Shown in pieces: positions 1 through 20,280 of a stretch of DNA of 25,854 bases (positions are counted from its first letter, which is position 1; each line of letters starts with the position of its first letter). The notes beneath the pieces are model-generated. The model was not told the DNA's origin and did no database searches. It saw only the letters and a program-made list of their open reading frames with translations. Both the position numbers and the translations under genes were made by a program. This stretch comes from a virus. The stretch spans positions 1-25,854 of the IMG/VR virus record IMGVR_UViG_3300034167_000054; one strand, written 5' to 3'.

Positions 1-704
1 ACAGCAGATCCGGTGACCTTCAGTGGAGCGTTGATCTCCACAGCACCCGTAAATGTCTTCTGCCCATCAATGGTCTGAATGCTATCGGTGAGGACTACTG
101 TTGCAGGGAGAGAACCAGCGTTAATGGTTGTTTCTTCCCAATGGACATCACCGGATGTACCGTTTGCTCCAAGTACATACTGCTTACCGTCTGGAGTCTT
201 GTCAGCAATGATGTCGAGACCTTGTAGGAACTTGAAGGATCCTTCGGCACCAATAGTCGTAGTTCCCGTGAATGTCTTGGATCCCGTAATGGTCTCAGCG
301 AAGTTGATGCTGACCCCTGCTCCACCCTGGTCGAGGAACTGATCCGAGGATTCCTGAGAGACATACAGGGAGTTCAGCTGCGACATATCCAAGTCTGATG
401 CAGTCAGTACATCACCATCGGTAAAGTTGATCACACGGTCAGCCTCACGCGCCGGTGTGAATCGACGGAGCATCACATTGCCTGGTGTTTGACCATCTGG
501 CGGAATATCGAAGTGGACATAGGTTGCACCGTTGATGGTCACGAAAGACCAGCCACTCGATATCTCTGTCTGATTCACATACACACGTACATGACTTGGG
601 TCGAGCGGTGCTCCCCCATAGAAGGTCACTAGGAAGTCATTGGTGCCGCCGTCACCTGAGTAGAAAGTACGGGCGTAGTAGTTCAGTTCATAGAATGCTG
701 GCAT
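1..704 (-). CDS. Tail fibre protein, N-terminal part (T7 gp17-like), cut by left edge
   Basis: The reading frame is open from an ATG at 704 to the window edge, giving about 234 residues. Residues near 85-120 carry the phage T7 tail-fibre N-terminal signature: LRRFTPAREADRVINFTDGD is followed by VLTASDLDMSQLNSL, matching the T7 gp17 pattern of RR.T....RLV.FTDGS.L.A.DLN. That domain attaches the fibre to the tail tube in the family. The ATG overlaps the gp16-like stop by one base (TGATG), and GAGGA lies five bases upstream, so the start is well supported. Beyond residue 130 the protein moves into a repeat of the form TI.G.KTFTG, seen twice. The receptor-binding C-terminus lies outside the window, so host range cannot be judged. 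Confidence 0.88.
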   Translation of the reverse strand, partial: MPAFYELNYYARTFYSGDGGTNDFLVTFYGGAPLDPSHVRVYVNQTEISSGWSFVTINGATYVHFDIPPDGQTPGNVMLRRFTPAREADRVINFTDGDVLTASDLDMSQLNSLYVSQESSDQFLDQGGAGVSINFAETITGSKTFTGTTTIGAEGSFKFLQGLDIIADKTPDGKQYVLGANGTSGDVHWEETTINAGSLPATVVLTDSIQTIDGQKTFTGAVEINAPLKVTGSA

Positions 705-3700
705 CAGTTTCCTCGGTAAAGATTGGCTTTGACATCACGGGCGTGTGCCATGGCTTGGGCTAGTTCAGGCGACTCTTTGATTAACTTCTCAAGGGCAACC
801 CGACGGTAGTCAGATACCTGCCCTCGGATGAGCGATGTGCGGGGACTTGTGATCCCATCGGTTCCCATTTCAGGGAGACCCTTGAAGAACGGTGATGAGA
901 TCACGGAGCGCAGTTGGTCACGCACAGTCTTCCCACCGATCTTCACTTGACCCGTGAGTTCCCCATAGCGGTCATAGGCAGACTGACCGTTCTTCAACTT
1001 GATCTGCTTGAGATCGATGTTGCCTGGGAGGGTTCGACGGGCACCACCGACTGAGATCAATGAATCCGATAGAGCACGGTTCACAGGATCCTTGGTTGCC
1101 CTAGTGCCAGTAACGGGGAACAGAATAGACCATGGGCTCTCGGTGCCTTGCAGTGGTTCCCCAAGAGCATTACGGGTCTTATCAACGGAGTTCCCCGTGA
1201 ACGGTAGACGAGCCAATATGGCATCGACTGCGTTACGGGTTTCATAGATGGTGCTGTCGGTAAAGGTTGCCTCAGTCTGTGCCAAGGCGTTCGGTACAAC
1301 TGCTCCTGCAAACTGACGCATCATCTTGTTTGCAGCAGCCTCATCACCCATGGCCGCCGACATAGCCGTAGTCAATCCACGCAGGTATGACTTGGAAGTC
1401 ACATTGTTAGCGATAGACATGATGGCAGCCTTAGAGACACCCATGATGATCCCGTTGTCCTCAGGGGTTGGGTCATAGGTGCTGCGGCTGATGTCCACAG
1501 TGTCCGCAACGATTCCAAGGAAGGTGGCTACGGGGTCATTGCGTCCAAAGGAGACATACACGCCTCCCACCTTGATGGCATAGGGTTGCCAACCGGATGC
1601 AAGGAGTTGCTTTCGGATATCAGGATCTACAGGACCCTTGCCGGTGATCATGCCACTCGCTGCTAGACCGATGCCTGTGGTGTACAGGACACTTCCGGTA
1701 GCCAATCGCCCTGCTGCTTGAGCTGCTGCCTTCTTATCACCAGCCTTGGCTGCTTGCACCCAAGCGAGACTCTGCCCGATGGGGTTACGGTCTGTAACGA
1801 ATGCAAGAAGGTTCGTAGGGGTCTTGATGAACGGAACAATCAGTTGCAGTTCAGGTACATGACCAACTGCTGTTGAGAATGCCTTACCGATGTTGCCTAC
1901 GAGGCGTGAGCCGAAGGGTGCTGTTTCATCAGCGATATCGGTGTAGTCACGCTTCCAAGTTTGCTCCTTGACTCGACGCTCGATTTCCCCTGAGACACGC
2001 TGAAGGACTCGATAGTCCTCACCGGCGGCCTGTTGCATATTGCCACCAAAGGGAGCCAAGTCGCTATCGACAGTGGCATCCCAATTCTGATCGATATATC
2101 GTTGGACTTCAGGAATGAACAGAGGATGTGCCTTCGCCTTGGCACCTGAGGCATCCAAGGCAGAAAGCACAGCCTTCCGTTCAGTCACATCAGCAATAGC
2201 CTTGATGGCTTCTCGATCAACCTTACCGGCTTTCATCGAGGCGTTGTAAAGGCGGCTTACCTCAGTAACTACTGCTGGATCAGTTACAGGTTTCCCTAGG
2301 CGATCAGCAACCACGGTACCGAGGGTTTCCCGGAAAGCACCGGGCAGGTACTTATCCCGAGCCTGACGGAGCCCACGCTCTTCAACAGTCTTACGGGTGT
2401 ACAGCTGACCATCAATGAAGAGAAGATCACGGAGCCTCGATACCTCTGCTGATACCGCAGCATCTGTGAGGGGCTTGCCCATGCGCTTCGCTACATCAGC
2501 ACGGATAACCGTATCTGCTTCTGAGCGGGCAACAAGGGTCATAAAGAACTCATCGGAAAAACCGAGGGCTCTCATGGGAGCGTTGACGAATTGACCAAAC
2601 CAATCCATTGCAGCACCGGCTGGTGTGCGTTGGACTGCGCCGGTGACCTTGTCCACCTCGTTAAGCCAAGTAACACCCTTGGAACCAATACGCCTACCAG
2701 GTACAAACTCATCACCGTATTGTTGGTTTCCTCGACCGAGAACGAAGGAGTCACCTTCTTCTGATGCGGAGATCTTGAGAGCCTGAAAGGCATCCGTAGT
2801 CTGTGACCAGTACCGCGTGAGTACCGATAGTTCATTCGCTGCGCCCGCTGCATCACCTGACAATGCTTTGCCAGCAGCCCGCTCAAGAGGCATTGCCAAC
2901 ATCTGCAAGCCGTTCCATGCATTGACTGCAAGGGTCTTTGGTCCCGACAGGATCGAGTTACGGAACATCTCAACCGTCACACGCATTCCGCTTCGATAGG
3001 AACCTTCTGTGAGTAGTTGGGCAGCGCGGCGGCCTGTCTTGGGATCTAGTAGAAGTAACTGGAGAGTATCCCCCATCATTTCCATACGCACCCGCTGTTC
3101 CGCTGGTGTGAGTGCAAGGAACTGCTTACCTATCGTTTCCGTATCACTAAAGGCTTGAGACATTTGAAGGCTCTTGCCTATGTTTGATTTGATCCCCTCG
3201 GATGCTCTGAATATCTCAGTAAATGCCCTCAGCGCAGCATCAGAATCTGCTCCTGGCGCACGGATGGCTTGTAGGGCGTTGTAGCGTGATGCTGCTGTGA
3301 GACCTTCGAGGAATGGCATCATGTCAACGAGCTGTTTAGATGTAACTAACCCACGCTGCATTAACTGAATCCCCTCCGCAGCATTGATCGCACCTGTCTC
3401 CACAGCAGCCTTAACCGAGGCTATGCCGGTCATACGGTTGATTTCGTTTGTGGCGGGAGTTCCTTTGGCAAACTTATCGGGATTCGCCTCGTACTGACGG
3501 AGGGCGACGATTGCCTCTTCAAGCATATTGGGAGTAGGTGGTACCCCGGATCTCCCTGGGATCTTCCCAAGAAGTGGTTTCAGATTGATGAGACCCTTCT
3601 TCTCTAATTCATCGATACGGGCAGCAAGGGCAGCTACATCGGCTCCGCTAGTGTGCAGATCGTGAAGTTCCTTCATCGAAGGTGGGTCATTAACAACAGT

Positions 3701-5449
3701 CCGCATCCCGTCCACACTCGGAGGCGCAAATGCTGTAGTACCAGCAGCACTCTGCCCATACATACGCTGCTCTGCACGGCGACCTGCACCGAAGTAGAAC
3801 TCAGAATCCTTAGCAAGCGCGTAGCGACCGTTGAGCCAATCCTTAGTCAGCTTGTCGTACTTGGCACCACCGAACACCGCCTTGACTTCAGTAAGAGTGT
3901 TCTTGGTGAAGTAGCGGAGGAAGCCAAGTACTGACTTGGTATCTGCTTCAAGAGCGAGGCGCGAGAATGTTGCATCAGTCAATGTCTCTGCAACCCACTC
4001 ATCCATATTGATGAGGCGATACCACTCAGAGACAGGAATCTTCTTATCGAGAACAGCCTTCTTAAATGTCTTGGAGACAGCACCATCTACGGTTGCCTCG
4101 CGGGGACTGATGCCATGCTTATCAAAGAACGCAACATGAGCCTTCTCATAGTCACGCTTCATTGAAGCCAACATGGAATCATCGAGGTACCCAGTGAGTG
4201 AGTGCCACACTTCATGGACGAAGGTTCTCTTGGCATCACCTGTAGTGGTAGCGCGGCGGGCGATGTTGATGACATCCTGCGTGAAGGAGAATGATCCATT
4301 CTGATTAGGACCTAACTTCCTGAAGCGGATGCCCATGCTCTCAAAGTTGTCTACGCCCATCCGGCGGACAAGAGAGGTCATCATGGTGGCCTCTTCTTGA
4401 GTGATAGATCCACCTTGTCCTGCCTCACGGTTAATCCGATCCATCATGGCTTCTGCGCCACGCTTAACCGGGTACGTAGGATCAGATGTAGATGGCTTCT
4501 TAGGAGCAGCATCAGCAGCGAGGTTGTCCACAGCAGAACCGGGTGGGACATCATCAGCCGAATCAGTCAAGGCATCAATGAGCGATGGTTTCGGGGCAAC
4601 CTTGGCAGCCACAGCGTCACCCACAGGGGCAACCTCAGGCTGTGCCATCATGGAATCATCTTCAGCCCGAGCAGCAGCATCCGCAGCATCCTGTAGATCC
4701 TTACCGGCGACCTGCATGGCACCCTGCACAGCCTCCTCTTCAGACTTGCCAGCAGCCCGAAGACGCTTCATCTCCTTGACAGCCTTCATGGATCCCTTGA
4801 TTCCCGCGATGACTCCCTCAAAGGCACCACCAATGATGCCACCCTCAAGGGCGTTCTTTAGGCGACCTTCGAGTTCCGAGTCATTCATGTCGGTTGCCAT
4901 GAACTGCGTGAAGGCGTTATTCAGTGCAGGGTTGTCCGCTTGCACTAGGAGATCAGAGAGGCGACCTGCGTTGCCCTCGAAGGCAGCGAAGTCCGTAACG
5001 GCACCCTTGACAAAGGTTCCCCGGATAGCAGCTGATGCACCACCCCCTGCTCCACCCAACCAACCGGCGGTGGCACCTACAGCACCAGGGATCTTTGAGG
5101 CTGCCCCAAGGACACCCCCGGCAGCGAGGAACCCTGTGGCTACCTGCGAGATACCTGACACAATGGAACCAGACCATGATGTGCTAGTGCCCAGTGGGTT
5201 CGTGTGCCAATCTGGGAGGAGATCCATGGTTGCCCAATCGGCAAGGTTGTAGACACCCTTGGCAGCATCGATGGCACCACGGGGGACCGCCTTGATGGTG
5301 TCGTAGGTATCCCAGATGGGCTTCGATGGTTCTGCTGCGGGATCAGTAGGTTCCCCGAGATCCGTGGGCATCTGAGGAGATACCTGACCGTTGACGATGG
5401 CACTGAGCTCATCCTCGTTGAAGTATCTGCTATTTGGTGTTGTTGGCAT
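704..5449 (-). CDS. Large internal virion (ejection) protein, gp16-like, with HEXXH metallopeptidase motif
   Basis: A 1581-residue protein lies immediately before the tail fibre and after the gp15-like gene, the place of T7 gp16 (1318 residues). In the family this protein is ejected from the capsid core with the DNA and helps form the channel across the cell envelope. T7 gp16 begins with a lytic transglycosylase domain; I see no transglycosylase motif here. Instead residues 408-416 read KRTFVHEVWH-like, giving HEXXH at H412-E413-H416, and an acidic EW(V)AE segment at 484-488 could give the third zinc ligand. Gly/Ala-rich hydrophobic stretches occur near residues 95-150 and 1220-1250. PFIKTPTNLLAF near residue 1205 resembles a motif I associate with other large phage virion proteins. 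Role by synteny is firm; peptidase activity is inferred. Confidence 0.85.
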   Translation of the reverse strand: MPTTPNSRYFNEDELSAIVNGQVSPQMPTDLGEPTDPAAEPSKPIWDTYDTIKAVPRGAIDAAKGVYNLADWATMDLLPDWHTNPLGTSTSWSGSIVSGISQVATGFLAAGGVLGAASKIPGAVGATAGWLGGAGGGASAAIRGTFVKGAVTDFAAFEGNAGRLSDLLVQADNPALNNAFTQFMATDMNDSELEGRLKNALEGGIIGGAFEGVIAGIKGSMKAVKEMKRLRAAGKSEEEAVQGAMQVAGKDLQDAADAAARAEDDSMMAQPEVAPVGDAVAAKVAPKPSLIDALTDSADDVPPGSAVDNLAADAAPKKPSTSDPTYPVKRGAEAMMDRINREAGQGGSITQEEATMMTSLVRRMGVDNFESMGIRFRKLGPNQNGSFSFTQDVINIARRATTTGDAKRTFVHEVWHSLTGYLDDSMLASMKRDYEKAHVAFFDKHGISPREATVDGAVSKTFKKAVLDKKIPVSEWYRLINMDEWVAETLTDATFSRLALEADTKSVLGFLRYFTKNTLTEVKAVFGGAKYDKLTKDWLNGRYALAKDSEFYFGAGRRAEQRMYGQSAAGTTAFAPPSVDGMRTVVNDPPSMKELHDLHTSGADVAALAARIDELEKKGLINLKPLLGKIPGRSGVPPTPNMLEEAIVALRQYEANPDKFAKGTPATNEINRMTGIASVKAAVETGAINAAEGIQLMQRGLVTSKQLVDMMPFLEGLTAASRYNALQAIRAPGADSDAALRAFTEIFRASEGIKSNIGKSLQMSQAFSDTETIGKQFLALTPAEQRVRMEMMGDTLQLLLLDPKTGRRAAQLLTEGSYRSGMRVTVEMFRNSILSGPKTLAVNAWNGLQMLAMPLERAAGKALSGDAAGAANELSVLTRYWSQTTDAFQALKISASEEGDSFVLGRGNQQYGDEFVPGRRIGSKGVTWLNEVDKVTGAVQRTPAGAAMDWFGQFVNAPMRALGFSDEFFMTLVARSEADTVIRADVAKRMGKPLTDAAVSAEVSRLRDLLFIDGQLYTRKTVEERGLRQARDKYLPGAFRETLGTVVADRLGKPVTDPAVVTEVSRLYNASMKAGKVDREAIKAIADVTERKAVLSALDASGAKAKAHPLFIPEVQRYIDQNWDATVDSDLAPFGGNMQQAAGEDYRVLQRVSGEIERRVKEQTWKRDYTDIADETAPFGSRLVGNIGKAFSTAVGHVPELQLIVPFIKTPTNLLAFVTDRNPIGQSLAWVQAAKAGDKKAAAQAAGRLATGSVLYTTGIGLAASGMITGKGPVDPDIRKQLLASGWQPYAIKVGGVYVSFGRNDPVATFLGIVADTVDISRSTYDPTPEDNGIIMGVSKAAIMSIANNVTSKSYLRGLTTAMSAAMGDEAAANKMMRQFAGAVVPNALAQTEATFTDSTIYETRNAVDAILARLPFTGNSVDKTRNALGEPLQGTESPWSILFPVTGTRATKDPVNRALSDSLISVGGARRTLPGNIDLKQIKLKNGQSAYDRYGELTGQVKIGGKTVRDQLRSVISSPFFKGLPEMGTDGITSPRTSLIRGQVSDYRRVALEKLIKESPELAQAMAHARDVKANLYRGN

Positions 5450-16239: not shown

Positions 16240-16416
16240 TTATTTTTCCTGTTGTTCTTTGAGCTTTAGTTCGAGGAATTGGATCACTGACCAACTCCCA
16301 AGGCGGTGCCAGATAGCGCGGTCTTGATCATCCAACCGAGGGATGGGTAGAGGGAACCGCGCCTTCAAGGCAACGATCAATTGGGGATTGATTAGCGGGA
16401 TTTCAGTATCCTTCAT
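16240..16416 (-). CDS. Small conserved protein upstream of the portal block
   Basis: This 58-residue protein reads MKDTEIPLINPQLIVALKAR with DDQDRAIWHRLGSWSVIQFL further on. The pattern of an N-terminal LINP and a central D(R/Q)..IW...G..SV(I/V).FL looks like a family I recall in many T7-like podophages just before the connector genes. No function is known to me. The frame is open further upstream, but the ATG at 16416 overlaps the preceding stop by four bases (ATGA), which is the favoured layout here. Soluble, no membrane segment. Confidence 0.72.
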   Translation of the reverse strand: MKDTEIPLINPQLIVALKARFPLPIPRLDDQDRAIWHRLGSWSVIQFLELKLKEQQEK

Positions 16417-16814
16417 TCCATAGGTACCAATCCAGGCAGGATGACCTCGCCGGTGTCGTTCAATTCCATGGGCAAAGTGTTCTCCCGGATCCGGTTGAGA
16501 GTCCATTGGTAAGCCGCAAGGTTCCAACGGGCAGCCTGTAGATGGGGCTCATCCCGGTGACCAATCATGTACCGGGTCAGATGCCGTAGGCCTGAGTCGA
16601 GGTAGCGCGATAGGGGCTGCCCCTTCTCCCAGTTGCGATCCCCATACTTCTTCGCACCCAACTCCATGTACCGGGCATCTGCTTCGATGACTTCCCAAGG
16701 AAGGAGATCGAACCTCCCCTTCCCCTCCCGTGTATCCCGGCGGCTACCTGTGTTCCACTCCTGCCGCTTGCCACTGTCCTTCAGGCTGATCCCTGCTATT
16801 TGATGATCACTCAT
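16413..16814 (-). CDS. Putative dATP/dGTP diphosphohydrolase-like protein
   Basis: The 133-residue protein carries a conserved helical core: GKGRFDLLPW (31-40), EADARYMELGAKKYGDRNWE (44-63), YLDSGLRHLTRY (71-82) and DEPHLQAARWN (88-98). This matches the phage family annotated as dATP/dGTP diphosphohydrolase N-terminal domain, in which the GA.KYG.RNW and R H...DEPHL..A.WN stretches recur. Such proteins are thought to cleave purine deoxynucleoside triphosphates and so shape the nucleotide pool; the reaction here is inferred. It lies between an unknown coiled-coil gene (four-base overlap) and a small conserved gene (four-base overlap), at the replication-to-assembly boundary. Confidence 0.68.
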   Translation of the reverse strand: MSDHQIAGISLKDSGKRQEWNTGSRRDTREGKGRFDLLPWEVIEADARYMELGAKKYGDRNWEKGQPLSRYLDSGLRHLTRYMIGHRDEPHLQAARWNLAAYQWTLNRIRENTLPMELNDTGEVILPGLVPME

Positions 16815-17893: not shown

Positions 17894-18120
17894 GTCTCGT
17901 CCCTACCATCTCGCTCTTCAGAATTAGTAATCATGTTCCGCACCCGCATTGAGAGCATCTCAGTCATCCCCAGCATCTCGGGAGCACTCCCATTGGTTTC
18001 CATAACGATTGCATAGGTGGTCTTGGATCTGTTCTGGTACCCAAAGAACACGAAGCAATCCATGCGCTTATCGATCTCTTCGAGTAGTTCTGTGGTGCTT
18101 GCAAGTTCAAGGTCTTTCAT
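17890..18120 (-). CDS. Unknown 76-residue protein between homing endonuclease and exonuclease
   Basis: I do not recognise this protein. It reads MKDLELASTTELLEEIDKRM, then CFVFFGYQNRSKTTYAIVME, then a helical, Met-rich C-terminal half (EMLGMTEMLSMRVRNMI). The likely fold is alpha-beta-alpha, soluble. The frame runs open further upstream, but the ATG at 18120 overlaps the homing endonuclease stop by four bases (ATGA) and has AAGGA six bases before it. Its stop overlaps the exonuclease start in the same way. If the endonuclease is a later insertion, this gene now takes its ribosome binding site from the end of that gene. Confidence 0.7.
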   Translation of the reverse strand: MKDLELASTTELLEEIDKRMDCFVFFGYQNRSKTTYAIVMETNGSAPEMLGMTEMLSMRVRNMITNSEERDGRDET

Positions 18121-18542
18121 GAAGATTCCTTTCCGTAGTCGATTCGCTTCAATGACTTGATGCGCTGTATCAGTTGCTTCCGTTGCTCTGACCCTGGAGG
18201 CCAAGTGCGGATCTGTGTCATCAAGGATGCTTGGGTTCGCTTCTCAATGAGGTAAGGCGAGACCATCAGGGCAGCATTGATTGCGTTGTCTCCATCAACG
18301 ACCCACTCCCAGGCTGTACGGGCGTTGGGGTTGGTGGTGGACTTGCGGCGGATGCTTCCGCCCCATTCCTTCTTGAGCGCAGCGAGTACCCCTGGAAATG
18401 TGTTCGAGACACATAGGCGCGCATTGCCCTTGCGGTAGAGCGCAAAGGATCCTTCACCATCGATATAGCCAGCCAGATAAGCAATCCAGTTGCTCCTTTC
18501 AATGAGTCTCGGCCCATGAAGCCCCGGTACGGAACTCACCAT
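18117..18542 (-). CDS. LAGLIDADG homing endonuclease, single motif
   Basis: The frame contains IAYLAGYIDGEGSFALYRKG, a clear single LAGLIDADG motif with Glu at the catalytic acid position, followed by a basic beta region (GGSIRRKSTTN), W.W.V.G, and SPYLIEKRTQASLM, which matches the later part of the family domain. Single-motif members act as homodimers that cut long DNA sites and copy their own gene. It lies directly after the DNA polymerase gene. The start is unclear. The ATG at 18542 gives 141 residues but lies inside the polymerase and lacks a ribosome binding site. A strong AAAGGAG at 18493-18499 sits seven bases before an in-frame ATT at 18485, which would give 122 residues. Confidence 0.82.
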   Translation of the reverse strand: MVSSVPGLHGPRLIERSNWIAYLAGYIDGEGSFALYRKGNARLCVSNTFPGVLAALKKEWGGSIRRKSTTNPNARTAWEWVVDGDNAINAALMVSPYLIEKRTQASLMTQIRTWPPGSEQRKQLIQRIKSLKRIDYGKESS

Positions 18543-20280
18543 CGAGGGCACACCGGAAGCCAAGGGTTTCCCCTGCTGACTTGATGCAACCAACGGCACT
18601 GGTGCCAATGTGGTCTTCGAGACCCCGACGGCATTCGATTTGGAACTCATCATGGATCCATCCGATGACTGCATAGTCTTTCCCCCATTCGAGATTTGCC
18701 CAGGACATATTCTGAACGAAGTGCAAGAGTGCTTGCTTCATAATGACTGCACCGGCAGACTGAAGCAGTGTGTTCAATGCTGCGTGTTCTGAGCGGATAG
18801 GTAGATGTCTGCCATCGAGACCAATCAGGTACCCACGCTTCGATGCTGCTGATACGCAGTCTTTGAGAACCTTGTAGGCACCCACCTTCTTCTCAAAGGA
18901 ACCCCGGAGCCGCTTGCCTTCCTTCACGCCACCACCAACGGTCATGCCTAACTTGAGATCACCGGCTCCATAGATCATTGCATAGATCAGAGTCTTAGCG
19001 ATGTTCCGCTTCTCTTCAAGATCTGCATTGTGCTTATCCCGCTTAGTCCCTGGTGCAACGATGCCGAATGCAATCGCGTTCGTCCAATGGATGTCACCCT
19101 CAAGTACAGCCTTGCAGTAGAGACCATCGTCATAAGCATGGAGGAAGTGGGATAGGCAGCGAAGCTCTAGCCCCGAAGCATCAGCACCAACGAGTACCCA
19201 GTTGGGACGGGGACCAAAGAGGCTTCGACACTCCTTGCCATAGGGTGACCTTGAGGCAGGAACCTGCGCCATGTTGGGCTTACTGTGGGTTGCTCTGCCG
19301 GTGACTGCACCATTGGTATTGATGCGGCCATGGATGACTCCATTGCGGGACAACTTCACCCATGCTTCCTCACCCTCACCGATCTGCCCAAGACGCTTCA
19401 CGATCAGTAGGTACTCACATAGAAGTTTGGCTTCCGGATAAGGGAGCTTTGAGAGCACCGCCTCGTCGATCTTTGGTTGCCCTGAGGGAGTCACCTCCTC
19501 CGCTTGCCACCCGTAGAGTTCATTAAGACCTCTCGCAATGTCCATACGAGACCCTGGGTTGAATACAGCGGTCTTCACCTTGGTCTTCATCTGAATCATC
19601 TTGGCAGGGAAGACCTTCACCAACTGTTCCTTGAGATCCACCCGCTTGATCAGTAGTTGCGCGGTGAGCCTGTCAGCACCAGGGCGATCAAAGTGCCACC
19701 CTGCTCTCTCAATGCGTTGGCAGATGCGAGCGACCCCTAGTTCCAACTCAACGGCCTTCGGTGCAGGACCCTGTGCAATCAGGTGCTGATAGAGAGCCAG
19801 GGTGACCTTGGTATCTACTTCGCAGTAGTCCTGCATCTCCTGAGTCCATGCTGACCAATCAGCGTTCTCACCGTAGGTGTCCTTGAGGAGACCAAGACGC
19901 TGCCCCCATGCCTTGAGGCTGTGGCTACCAATCAGTTCCTTGTTGAATCCAACACGCTTCCAATCATCATTGCGGAGGTCTGGGTAGACCAAGCGAGAGA
20001 GTGTCAGGGTGTCAAGGATCTTCTTGGTTGGAATGAATCCAAGGAGTTGTTGAAGGATCGGTAGATCGAAGCCAATGATGTTCTGACCGATGATGCAAGA
20101 GGCTTCTTGGAGAACCTTGATGGAAGCACCATGACCTGAGGCAAGACTTGTAGATGTAAGGATGGCTCCGGTATTCGCATCACGGGTGACGATGCACCAG
20201 ATCCTTGTGGAGGCATCGAGTGAATCGGTCTCGATATCGAAGACCACAGAAGTGTCCAAAGTATTTGGACTATTGCTCAT
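18499..20280 (-). CDS. DNA polymerase, family A, gp5-like, with 3'-5' exonuclease
   Basis: The 593-residue protein has the proofreading motifs Exo I DIETDS (Asp15, Glu17), Exo II NIIGFD (Asp72) and Exo III YCEVD (Tyr152, Asp156). The polymerase motifs are A DASGLELR (Asp367), B KRNIAKTLIY (Arg425, Lys429, Tyr433) and C HDE (543-545). It ends GASWAETH, typical of the group. T7 gp5 has 704 residues. The shortfall lies mainly before VFNPGSR at 239, where T7 carries its roughly 75-residue thioredoxin-binding loop; here only about 13 residues separate the corresponding helix end from that motif. It replicates the phage genome together with the primase-helicase and SSB. Start overlaps the preceding gene by four bases. 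Confidence 0.96.
   Translation of the reverse strand: MSNSPNTLDTSVVFDIETDSLDASTRIWCIVTRDANTGAILTSTSLASGHGASIKVLQEASCIIGQNIIGFDLPILQQLLGFIPTKKILDTLTLSRLVYPDLRNDDWKRVGFNKELIGSHSLKAWGQRLGLLKDTYGENADWSAWTQEMQDYCEVDTKVTLALYQHLIAQGPAPKAVELELGVARICQRIERAGWHFDRPGADRLTAQLLIKRVDLKEQLVKVFPAKMIQMKTKVKTAVFNPGSRMDIARGLNELYGWQAEEVTPSGQPKIDEAVLSKLPYPEAKLLCEYLLIVKRLGQIGEGEEAWVKLSRNGVIHGRINTNGAVTGRATHSKPNMAQVPASRSPYGKECRSLFGPRPNWVLVGADASGLELRCLSHFLHAYDDGLYCKAVLEGDIHWTNAIAFGIVAPGTKRDKHNADLEEKRNIAKTLIYAMIYGAGDLKLGMTVGGGVKEGKRLRGSFEKKVGAYKVLKDCVSAASKRGYLIGLDGRHLPIRSEHAALNTLLQSAGAVIMKQALLHFVQNMSWANLEWGKDYAVIGWIHDEFQIECRRGLEDHIGTSAVGCIKSAGETLGFRCALDGEFRTGASWAETH

What the first reader, a model, noticed from the sequence alone, without database searches (positions are those of the whole stretch)
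3980..4240. Metallopeptidase motif inside the gp16-like ejection protein
The protein that occupies the T7 gp16 position has HEVWH at residues 412-416, preceded by a hydrophobic helix start (RTFV) and followed about 70 residues later by EWVAE, a plausible third zinc ligand. No lytic transglycosylase motif is seen, although T7 gp16 uses one to open peptidoglycan. This suggests that the phage carries a zincin-type peptidase in its virion to cut a cell-wall peptide or a protein during genome entry.
Basis: partly seen in the sequence, partly recalled or inferred. Interest (0 to 1): 0.65.

Follow-up and report, generated by a model that had tools for sequence, protein, structure and literature searches.

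The report
Swappable peptidase cassette in phage ejection protein
A protein that this T7-like phage probably injects with its DNA carries a zinc-peptidase domain with a strictly conserved active site; close relatives lose or swap the domain while keeping the rest of the protein, which suggests an injected weapon against host proteins rather than an essential cell-wall drill.

Summary
HEVWH (residues 412-416) and EWVAE (484-488) are present as described in the 1581-aa protein at window 704-5449(-), the gp16-position ejection protein of a T7-like phage. They form a real domain. Across about 50 homologues (about 30 clusters at 90% identity, down to about 20% identity) H412, E413, H416, Y477 and E484 are invariant, and the Y-x6-E spacing is fixed; E488 is not conserved. 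AlphaFold2 gives a confident model (pLDDT 84.6, pTM 0.83); its best PDB matches are zincins (jannalysin/selecase, probability 0.99-1.00; IrrE). No Pfam, NCBIfam, PHROG or isolate-phage sequence match covers the domain.

It is an optional cassette. Relatives 85-89% identical elsewhere lack residues about 313-574 cleanly. Pairs with near-identical cores differ in having it, and one pair carries different inserts. 30 of 42 complete relatives have HExxH in this slot, none outside it. The same domain sits in an unrelated gp16-like backbone, beside an ADP-ribosyltransferase domain, and in a giant polyvalent protein.

Best reading: a polyvalent-protein-type zincin effector, ejected with the genome to cleave a host protein. 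A cell-wall or entry-essential role is disfavoured. The general kind is known (Iyer et al. 2017; N4 vRNAP); the swappable slot in T7-type ejection proteins appears new.

The parts
704..5449 (-). gp16-position internal virion (ejection) protein, 1581 aa (P0001)
   Evidence: ORF; C-terminal half matches phrog_6651 'internal virion protein', E 1.2e-41; lies after gp14-like (PF24072) and gp15-position genes and before the T7-type tail fibre gene
4700..5449 (-). conserved N-terminal anchor, residues 1-250, with a hydrophobic segment at 96-114
   Evidence: found in 42 complete relatives; hydrophobicity
3728..4513 (-). optional cassette, residues about 313-574, absent in L005, L006 and L010
   Evidence: alignment A2; tblastn segments break at 308-322 and resume at 572
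3785..4504 (-). zincin domain, residues 316-555, predicted fold: helices, 3 strands, HExxH helix, Glu helix
   Evidence: AlphaFold2 pLDDT 84.6, pTM 0.83; Foldseek PDB top hits jannalysin/selecase prob 0.99-1.00, IrrE
4202..4216 (-). HEVWH, residues 412-416: predicted Zn ligands H412 and H416, general base E413
   Evidence: invariant in 48/48 homologues
4019..4021 (-). Tyr477, predicted active-site tyrosine
   Evidence: invariant in 49/49; always 7 residues before Glu484, 47/47
3986..4000 (-). EWVAE, residues 484-488; Glu484 predicted third Zn ligand
   Evidence: E484 invariant 49/49, E488 only 38/49
707..2989 (-). conserved C-terminal core of the ejection protein, residues 821-1581
   Evidence: alignment A5 and HMM; used for the slot survey

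Best explanation
The gp16-position ejection protein of this T7-like phage carries, in a flexible A/P/D-rich linker between its N-terminal anchor and its C-terminal core, an exchangeable zincin (gluzincin-type) metallopeptidase cassette of the polyvalent-protein kind. Two His (412, 416) and Glu484 bind Zn, Glu413 activates water, and Tyr477 probably stabilises the transition state. The protein is packaged in the virion, threaded out with the genome, refolds in the host, and the peptidase cleaves one or more host proteins (most likely a defence or early-infection factor) before phage genes are expressed. The domain, its active-site conservation and its cassette behaviour are shown by sequence and structure prediction; virion packaging is inferred from family and gene order; zinc binding, catalysis, cellular location and substrate are inferred.
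For: Invariant H/E/H/Y/E across about 50 domains in about 30 clusters at 90% identity. Confident model and zincin fold matches; the profile's best PDB hits include IrrE (E 0.005) and an IrrE orthologue (0.056). Clean absence in 85-89% identical relatives. Near-identical core pairs differing in the cassette: L060/L062 (97-98% flanks, 336-aa in-frame absence), L057/L058, L063/L068, L052/L053; L096/L099 carry different inserts between 97-99% identical flanks. At least 12 presence/absence changes on the core tree. HExxH in the slot in 30/42 complete proteins, 0 outside it, 0.17 expected. Same domain in a different backbone (L012/L014; phrog_342-type core in L014; no detectable core homology to the window's protein), next to ART-PolyVal in L036 and in a 4321-aa protein with LPD23 and a helicase (L041). 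Iyer et al. 2017 (PMC5512222) describe zincin MPTases as the commonest domain of polyvalent proteins, with T4 Alt, IPI, P1 Dar proteins and N4 vRNAP as examples of virion proteins acting early in the host. PMC12373910 shows variable injected proteins of T4 inhibiting restriction enzymes.
Against: No substrate, zinc binding or proteolysis has been shown. The window protein has no other recognised effector domain. Rapid gain and loss would also fit a host-specific periplasmic role. Foldseek E-values to PDB are above 0.01 (best 0.032) although probabilities are high. The slot survey was seeded with cores of cassette-bearing proteins, so 30/42 is not a population frequency.
Confidence: 0.6

Rival explanations
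1. Self-processing peptidase: the domain cuts its own polypeptide or a partner ejection protein before, during or after packaging, so that the ejection protein can be threaded or a product released.
For: Iyer et al. 2017 (PMC5512222) propose this for polyvalent MPTases by analogy to phage P1 DdrB processing; the cassette lies between two conserved modules.
Against: Near-identical ejection proteins exist without the cassette, so neither the backbone nor its partners seem to need cutting. The same paper notes that N4 vRNAP, with an MPTase, is packaged unprocessed.
Confidence: 0.15
2. Cell-wall peptidase: the zincin cuts peptidoglycan cross-link peptides so that the ejectosome can cross the wall, replacing T7 gp16's transglycosylase.
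For: No transglycosylase is recognisable in the protein; T7 gp16 has a wall-active N-terminal domain (PMC8954989).
Against: Cassette-less close relatives have nothing in its place; 8 of 8 deposited-genome homologues lack HExxH. Best fold matches are selecase-, IrrE- and lethal-factor-type proteinases, not dedicated wall peptidases. PMC8954989 says P22-like gp16 also lacks the wall domain, so its absence needs no replacement.
Confidence: 0.1
3. Catalytically dead zincin fold kept as a structural or binding module.
For: Activity is untested; the domain sits in a structural protein.
Against: Strict conservation of all five active-site residues, including the general base E413 and Tyr477, at about 20% overall identity.
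Confidence: 0.07

Closest known systems
Zincin-like MPTase domains of polyvalent proteins (Iyer et al. 2017, PMC5512222)
   Same: HExxH helix and a Glu in a second conserved helix, three-stranded sheet preceded by a helix; carried by large late-gene phage proteins; relatives of this domain sit beside ART-PolyVal (L036) and LPD23 plus helicase (L041)
   Different: The paper does not mention gp16 or internal virion proteins; this subfamily has no Pfam, NCBIfam or PHROG model that matches; it behaves as a present/absent cassette in a conserved ejection backbone; Y-x6-E motif
N4 virion RNA polymerase C1 domain (PMC5512222, PMC12633501)
   Same: HExxH domain inside a giant ejected protein of a short-tailed phage
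   Different: Fused to an RNA polymerase and required for encapsidation according to PMC5512222; here the carrier is a gp16-position protein and the domain is dispensable
T7 gp16 internal virion protein / ejectosome component
   Same: Gene order (gp14-like, gp15-position, gp16-position, tail fibre) and large size
   Different: No transglycosylase domain, no hit of P0001 to the gp16-type PHROG phrog_342, and a zincin cassette
IrrE/PprI and minigluzincins (jannalysin, selecase)
   Same: Best sequence-profile and fold matches among solved structures, same predicted ligand set
   Different: Longer and variable HExxH-to-Glu spacing (54-117 residues), extra helices, no significant family-model hit
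Anthrax lethal-factor-type (M34) fold
   Same: Weak profile hit over the Tyr/Glu segment (E 0.067) and low-ranking fold hits; Iyer et al. link polyvalent MPTases to it
   Different: Pfam ATLF hit only at E 0.49 for one member; not examined further

Membership tests
Zincin (gluzincin) metallopeptidase fold | HExxH motif conserved | tested here: met
   48/48
Zincin (gluzincin) metallopeptidase fold | third ligand Glu in a downstream helix | tested here: met
   E484 49/49; it is model residue 169, in helix 167-190
Zincin (gluzincin) metallopeptidase fold | overall fold | tested here: met
   pLDDT 84.6; top PDB matches are zincins, prob 0.99-1.00, although the Foldseek E-value is at best 0.032
Zincin (gluzincin) metallopeptidase fold | two His and Glu close together in space | not testable with these tools
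   the structure tool returns no coordinates
Zincin (gluzincin) metallopeptidase fold | Zn binding and proteolysis | not testable with these tools
   needs purified protein
Polyvalent-protein MPTase (Iyer 2017) | helix, three-stranded sheet, HExxH helix, Glu helix | tested here: met
   secondary structure of the model against the description in PMC5512222
Polyvalent-protein MPTase (Iyer 2017) | co-occurs with other polyvalent domains in one polypeptide | tested here: inconclusive
   met in relatives L036 (ART-PolyVal) and L041 (LPD23); not in the window's own protein
Polyvalent-protein MPTase (Iyer 2017) | belongs to one of the 12 published clades | not tested
   published alignment not available here
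T7 gp16 ejection protein | position after gp14/gp15-type genes and before the tail fibre gene | tested here: met
   PF24072 and PF03906 neighbours
T7 gp16 ejection protein | sequence match to the gp16-type family phrog_342 | tested here: not met
   P0001 matches phrog_6651 instead
T7 gp16 ejection protein | N-terminal transglycosylase domain | tested here: not met
   no hit in Pfam, PHROGs or NCBIfam
IrrE/ImmA (M78) | significant family-model match | tested here: not met
   no such Pfam or NCBIfam hit; PDB profile hit to IrrE at E 0.005 only

The most novel reading that the evidence does not exclude
T7-type ejection proteins contain a dedicated, rapidly exchanging effector slot, loaded with different peptidase and other cassettes, that delivers pre-made anti-host enzymes with the genome; the zincin is one cargo class and cleaves a specific bacterial defence protein.
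Probability: 0.4. Interest if true: 0.75.

Novelty: new variant of a known kind. Interest (0 to 1): 0.5.

Why it matters
It would turn the large, poorly understood gp16-type ejection proteins into delivery platforms whose middle section is a swap site for injected enzymes. Cassette-plus and cassette-minus pairs that are almost identical elsewhere give a natural test of what one injected peptidase does for the phage. The subfamily has no library model and no match among the deposited phage genomes searched here, so it has been invisible to annotation.

Tried and rejected
tblastn of the domain against isolate phages (four different representatives) and plasmids: nothing. Scan of genome contigs with A1: no relative, though the pattern method has limited reach. 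phmmer of the domain or the whole protein against PDB: nothing; only alignments gave hits. The first structure model (20 sequences) was weak, pLDDT 63.8; the 34-sequence alignment fixed this. Chance motif: rejected. Core homology between the window's protein and the L012-type protein: not found. Pfam scan of the long slots gave one strong identification (ART-PolyVal) and mostly weak hits. E488 as third ligand: rejected, not conserved.

Full report
Observation. The minus-strand ORF 704-5449 encodes 1581 aa. It follows gp14-like (PF24072) and gp15-position genes and precedes a T7-type tail fibre gene (PF03906); the rest of the window holds a T7-type RNA polymerase, DNA polymerase, primase/helicase, ssDNA-binding protein, portal, capsid and scaffold, so this is a T7-like (autographivirus-type) phage. 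Its C-terminal half matches phrog_6651 'internal virion protein'. HEVWH lies at 412-416 and EWVAE at 484-488, as stated. No transglycosylase model matches.

Is it a real active site? The domain (residues 310-570) has no acceptable match in Pfam, PHROGs, NCBIfam or PDB sequences and none in isolate phages or plasmids. IMG/VR gave relatives from 98% down to about 20% identity. In a 50-row alignment the residues H412, E413, H416 (48/48) and Y477, E484 (49/49) never vary, W415 is 42/48, and E488 varies. The spacing from HExxH to Glu484 ranges from 54 to 117 residues, while Tyr477 is always 7 residues before Glu484. With 34 sequences AlphaFold2 reaches pLDDT 84.6 and pTM 0.83: helices, three strands, the HExxH helix (91-106 of the model) and the Glu helix (167-190). 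The best PDB matches are jannalysin (prob 1.00), selecase (0.99; 2.6-2.7 A over 67 columns) and IrrE/PprI, and nearly all of the top ranks are metallopeptidases or relatives of them. Foldseek E-values are modest (0.03 upward), so the fold call rests on the coherence of the hit list, the secondary structure and the conservation together. The profile's best PDB sequence hit is IrrE, E 0.005. I conclude that this is a gluzincin-type domain. Coordinates are not returned, so the His-Glu distances were not measured.

It is a cassette. L005, L006 and L010 are 85-89% identical to the window protein but lack residues about 313-574. To survey this I searched with the C-terminal core only. Of 42 distinct proteins with both N-terminal anchor and core (40 from that scan, plus L036 and L029), 30 have HExxH between anchor and core and none has it elsewhere (0.17 expected by composition); 24 match the zincin HMM. 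Slots without HExxH are mostly 275-374 aa; slots with the zincin are typically 540-620 aa. On a tree of the core the presence of the zincin changes at least 12 times. Pairs with near-identical cores differ: L060/L062 share 97-98% identical flanks around a 336-aa in-frame difference; L057/L058, L063/L068 and L052/L053 behave alike; L096/L099 have 97-99% identical flanks around different inserts. Eight deposited phage genomes with homologous ejection proteins (Roseobacter, Pelagibacter, Synechococcus and Desulfovibrio phages and one uncultured genome) all lack HExxH in that protein. The survey was seeded with cores of cassette-bearing proteins, so 30/42 is not a population frequency.

Company it keeps. 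A 44% identical copy sits in L012 and L014, in 1905-1907-aa gp16-position proteins; the C-terminus of L014's protein matches phrog_342, and that backbone has no detectable homology to the window's core. In L036 (2604 aa) it lies in the same slot beside an ART-PolyVal domain and another HExxH. In L041 it is one of three HExxH sites in a 4321-aa protein with LPD23 and helicase domains. The viral fold library's top hits for the first, weaker model include several large polyvalent proteins and a virion RNA polymerase.

Mechanism. The literature supplies the frame: zincin MPTases are the commonest domain of polyvalent proteins, which are delivered with invading DNA (Iyer et al., PMC5512222); gp16-type proteins leave the virion, span the inner membrane and reach the cytoplasm (PMC8954989); variable injected proteins of T4 counter restriction systems (PMC12373910). 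Dispensability in near-identical relatives argues against an essential role in wall passage or in processing of the backbone; strict active-site conservation argues for catalysis; turnover at one site argues for arms-race selection. I therefore favour an ejected peptidase acting on host proteins (0.6), over self-processing (0.15), wall cutting (0.1) and a dead scaffold (0.07). Packaging and ejection are inferred; substrate and compartment are unknown.

Novelty. MPTases in phage virion proteins are known, so this is not a new kind. I found no description of a zincin in T7-type gp16-position proteins in the open-access library searched; subscription papers were not covered. What appears new is the uncatalogued subfamily with its Y-x6-E signature, and the swappable slot.

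Noticed in passing
L036 4853-12667: A 2604-aa ejection protein with two HExxH sites (343, 797), ART-PolyVal (491-659) and a short endolysin-PHROG match (1277-1329), all between anchor and core.
   Followed up: partly
L096 2060-7411 and L099 3683-8107: Two ejection genes 97-99% identical at both ends with quite different middle sections (about 2.1 kb against 1.2 kb): an apparent cassette exchange.
   Followed up: partly
L080, L082, L083, L085, L089, L092: Other HExxH sites (HEFAH, HESTH, HELAH, HEVSH, HEVAH) in the same slot that the zincin HMM does not recognise; possibly further peptidase classes.
   Followed up: no
L115, L123, L124: Long slots (610-886 aa) without HExxH: unidentified cargo.
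   Followed up: no
window 4223-4894 (-), residues 186-409: Weak match to the virion RNA polymerase family phrog_2206 (E 1.7e-5) that ends just before HEVWH; unexplained.
   Followed up: no
L040 5504-8296: Stretches flanking the zincin look ADP-ribosyltransferase-like by eye; Pfam found nothing at E<=0.01.
   Followed up: no
window 18117-18674 (-): HNH endonuclease gene overlapping the end of the DNA polymerase gene and lying next to the exonuclease gene.
   Followed up: no
window 16413-16814 (-): 133-aa protein matching parts of a pyrophosphohydrolase and an endolysin PHROG; probably a small shared accessory domain rather than a lysis enzyme.
   Followed up: no
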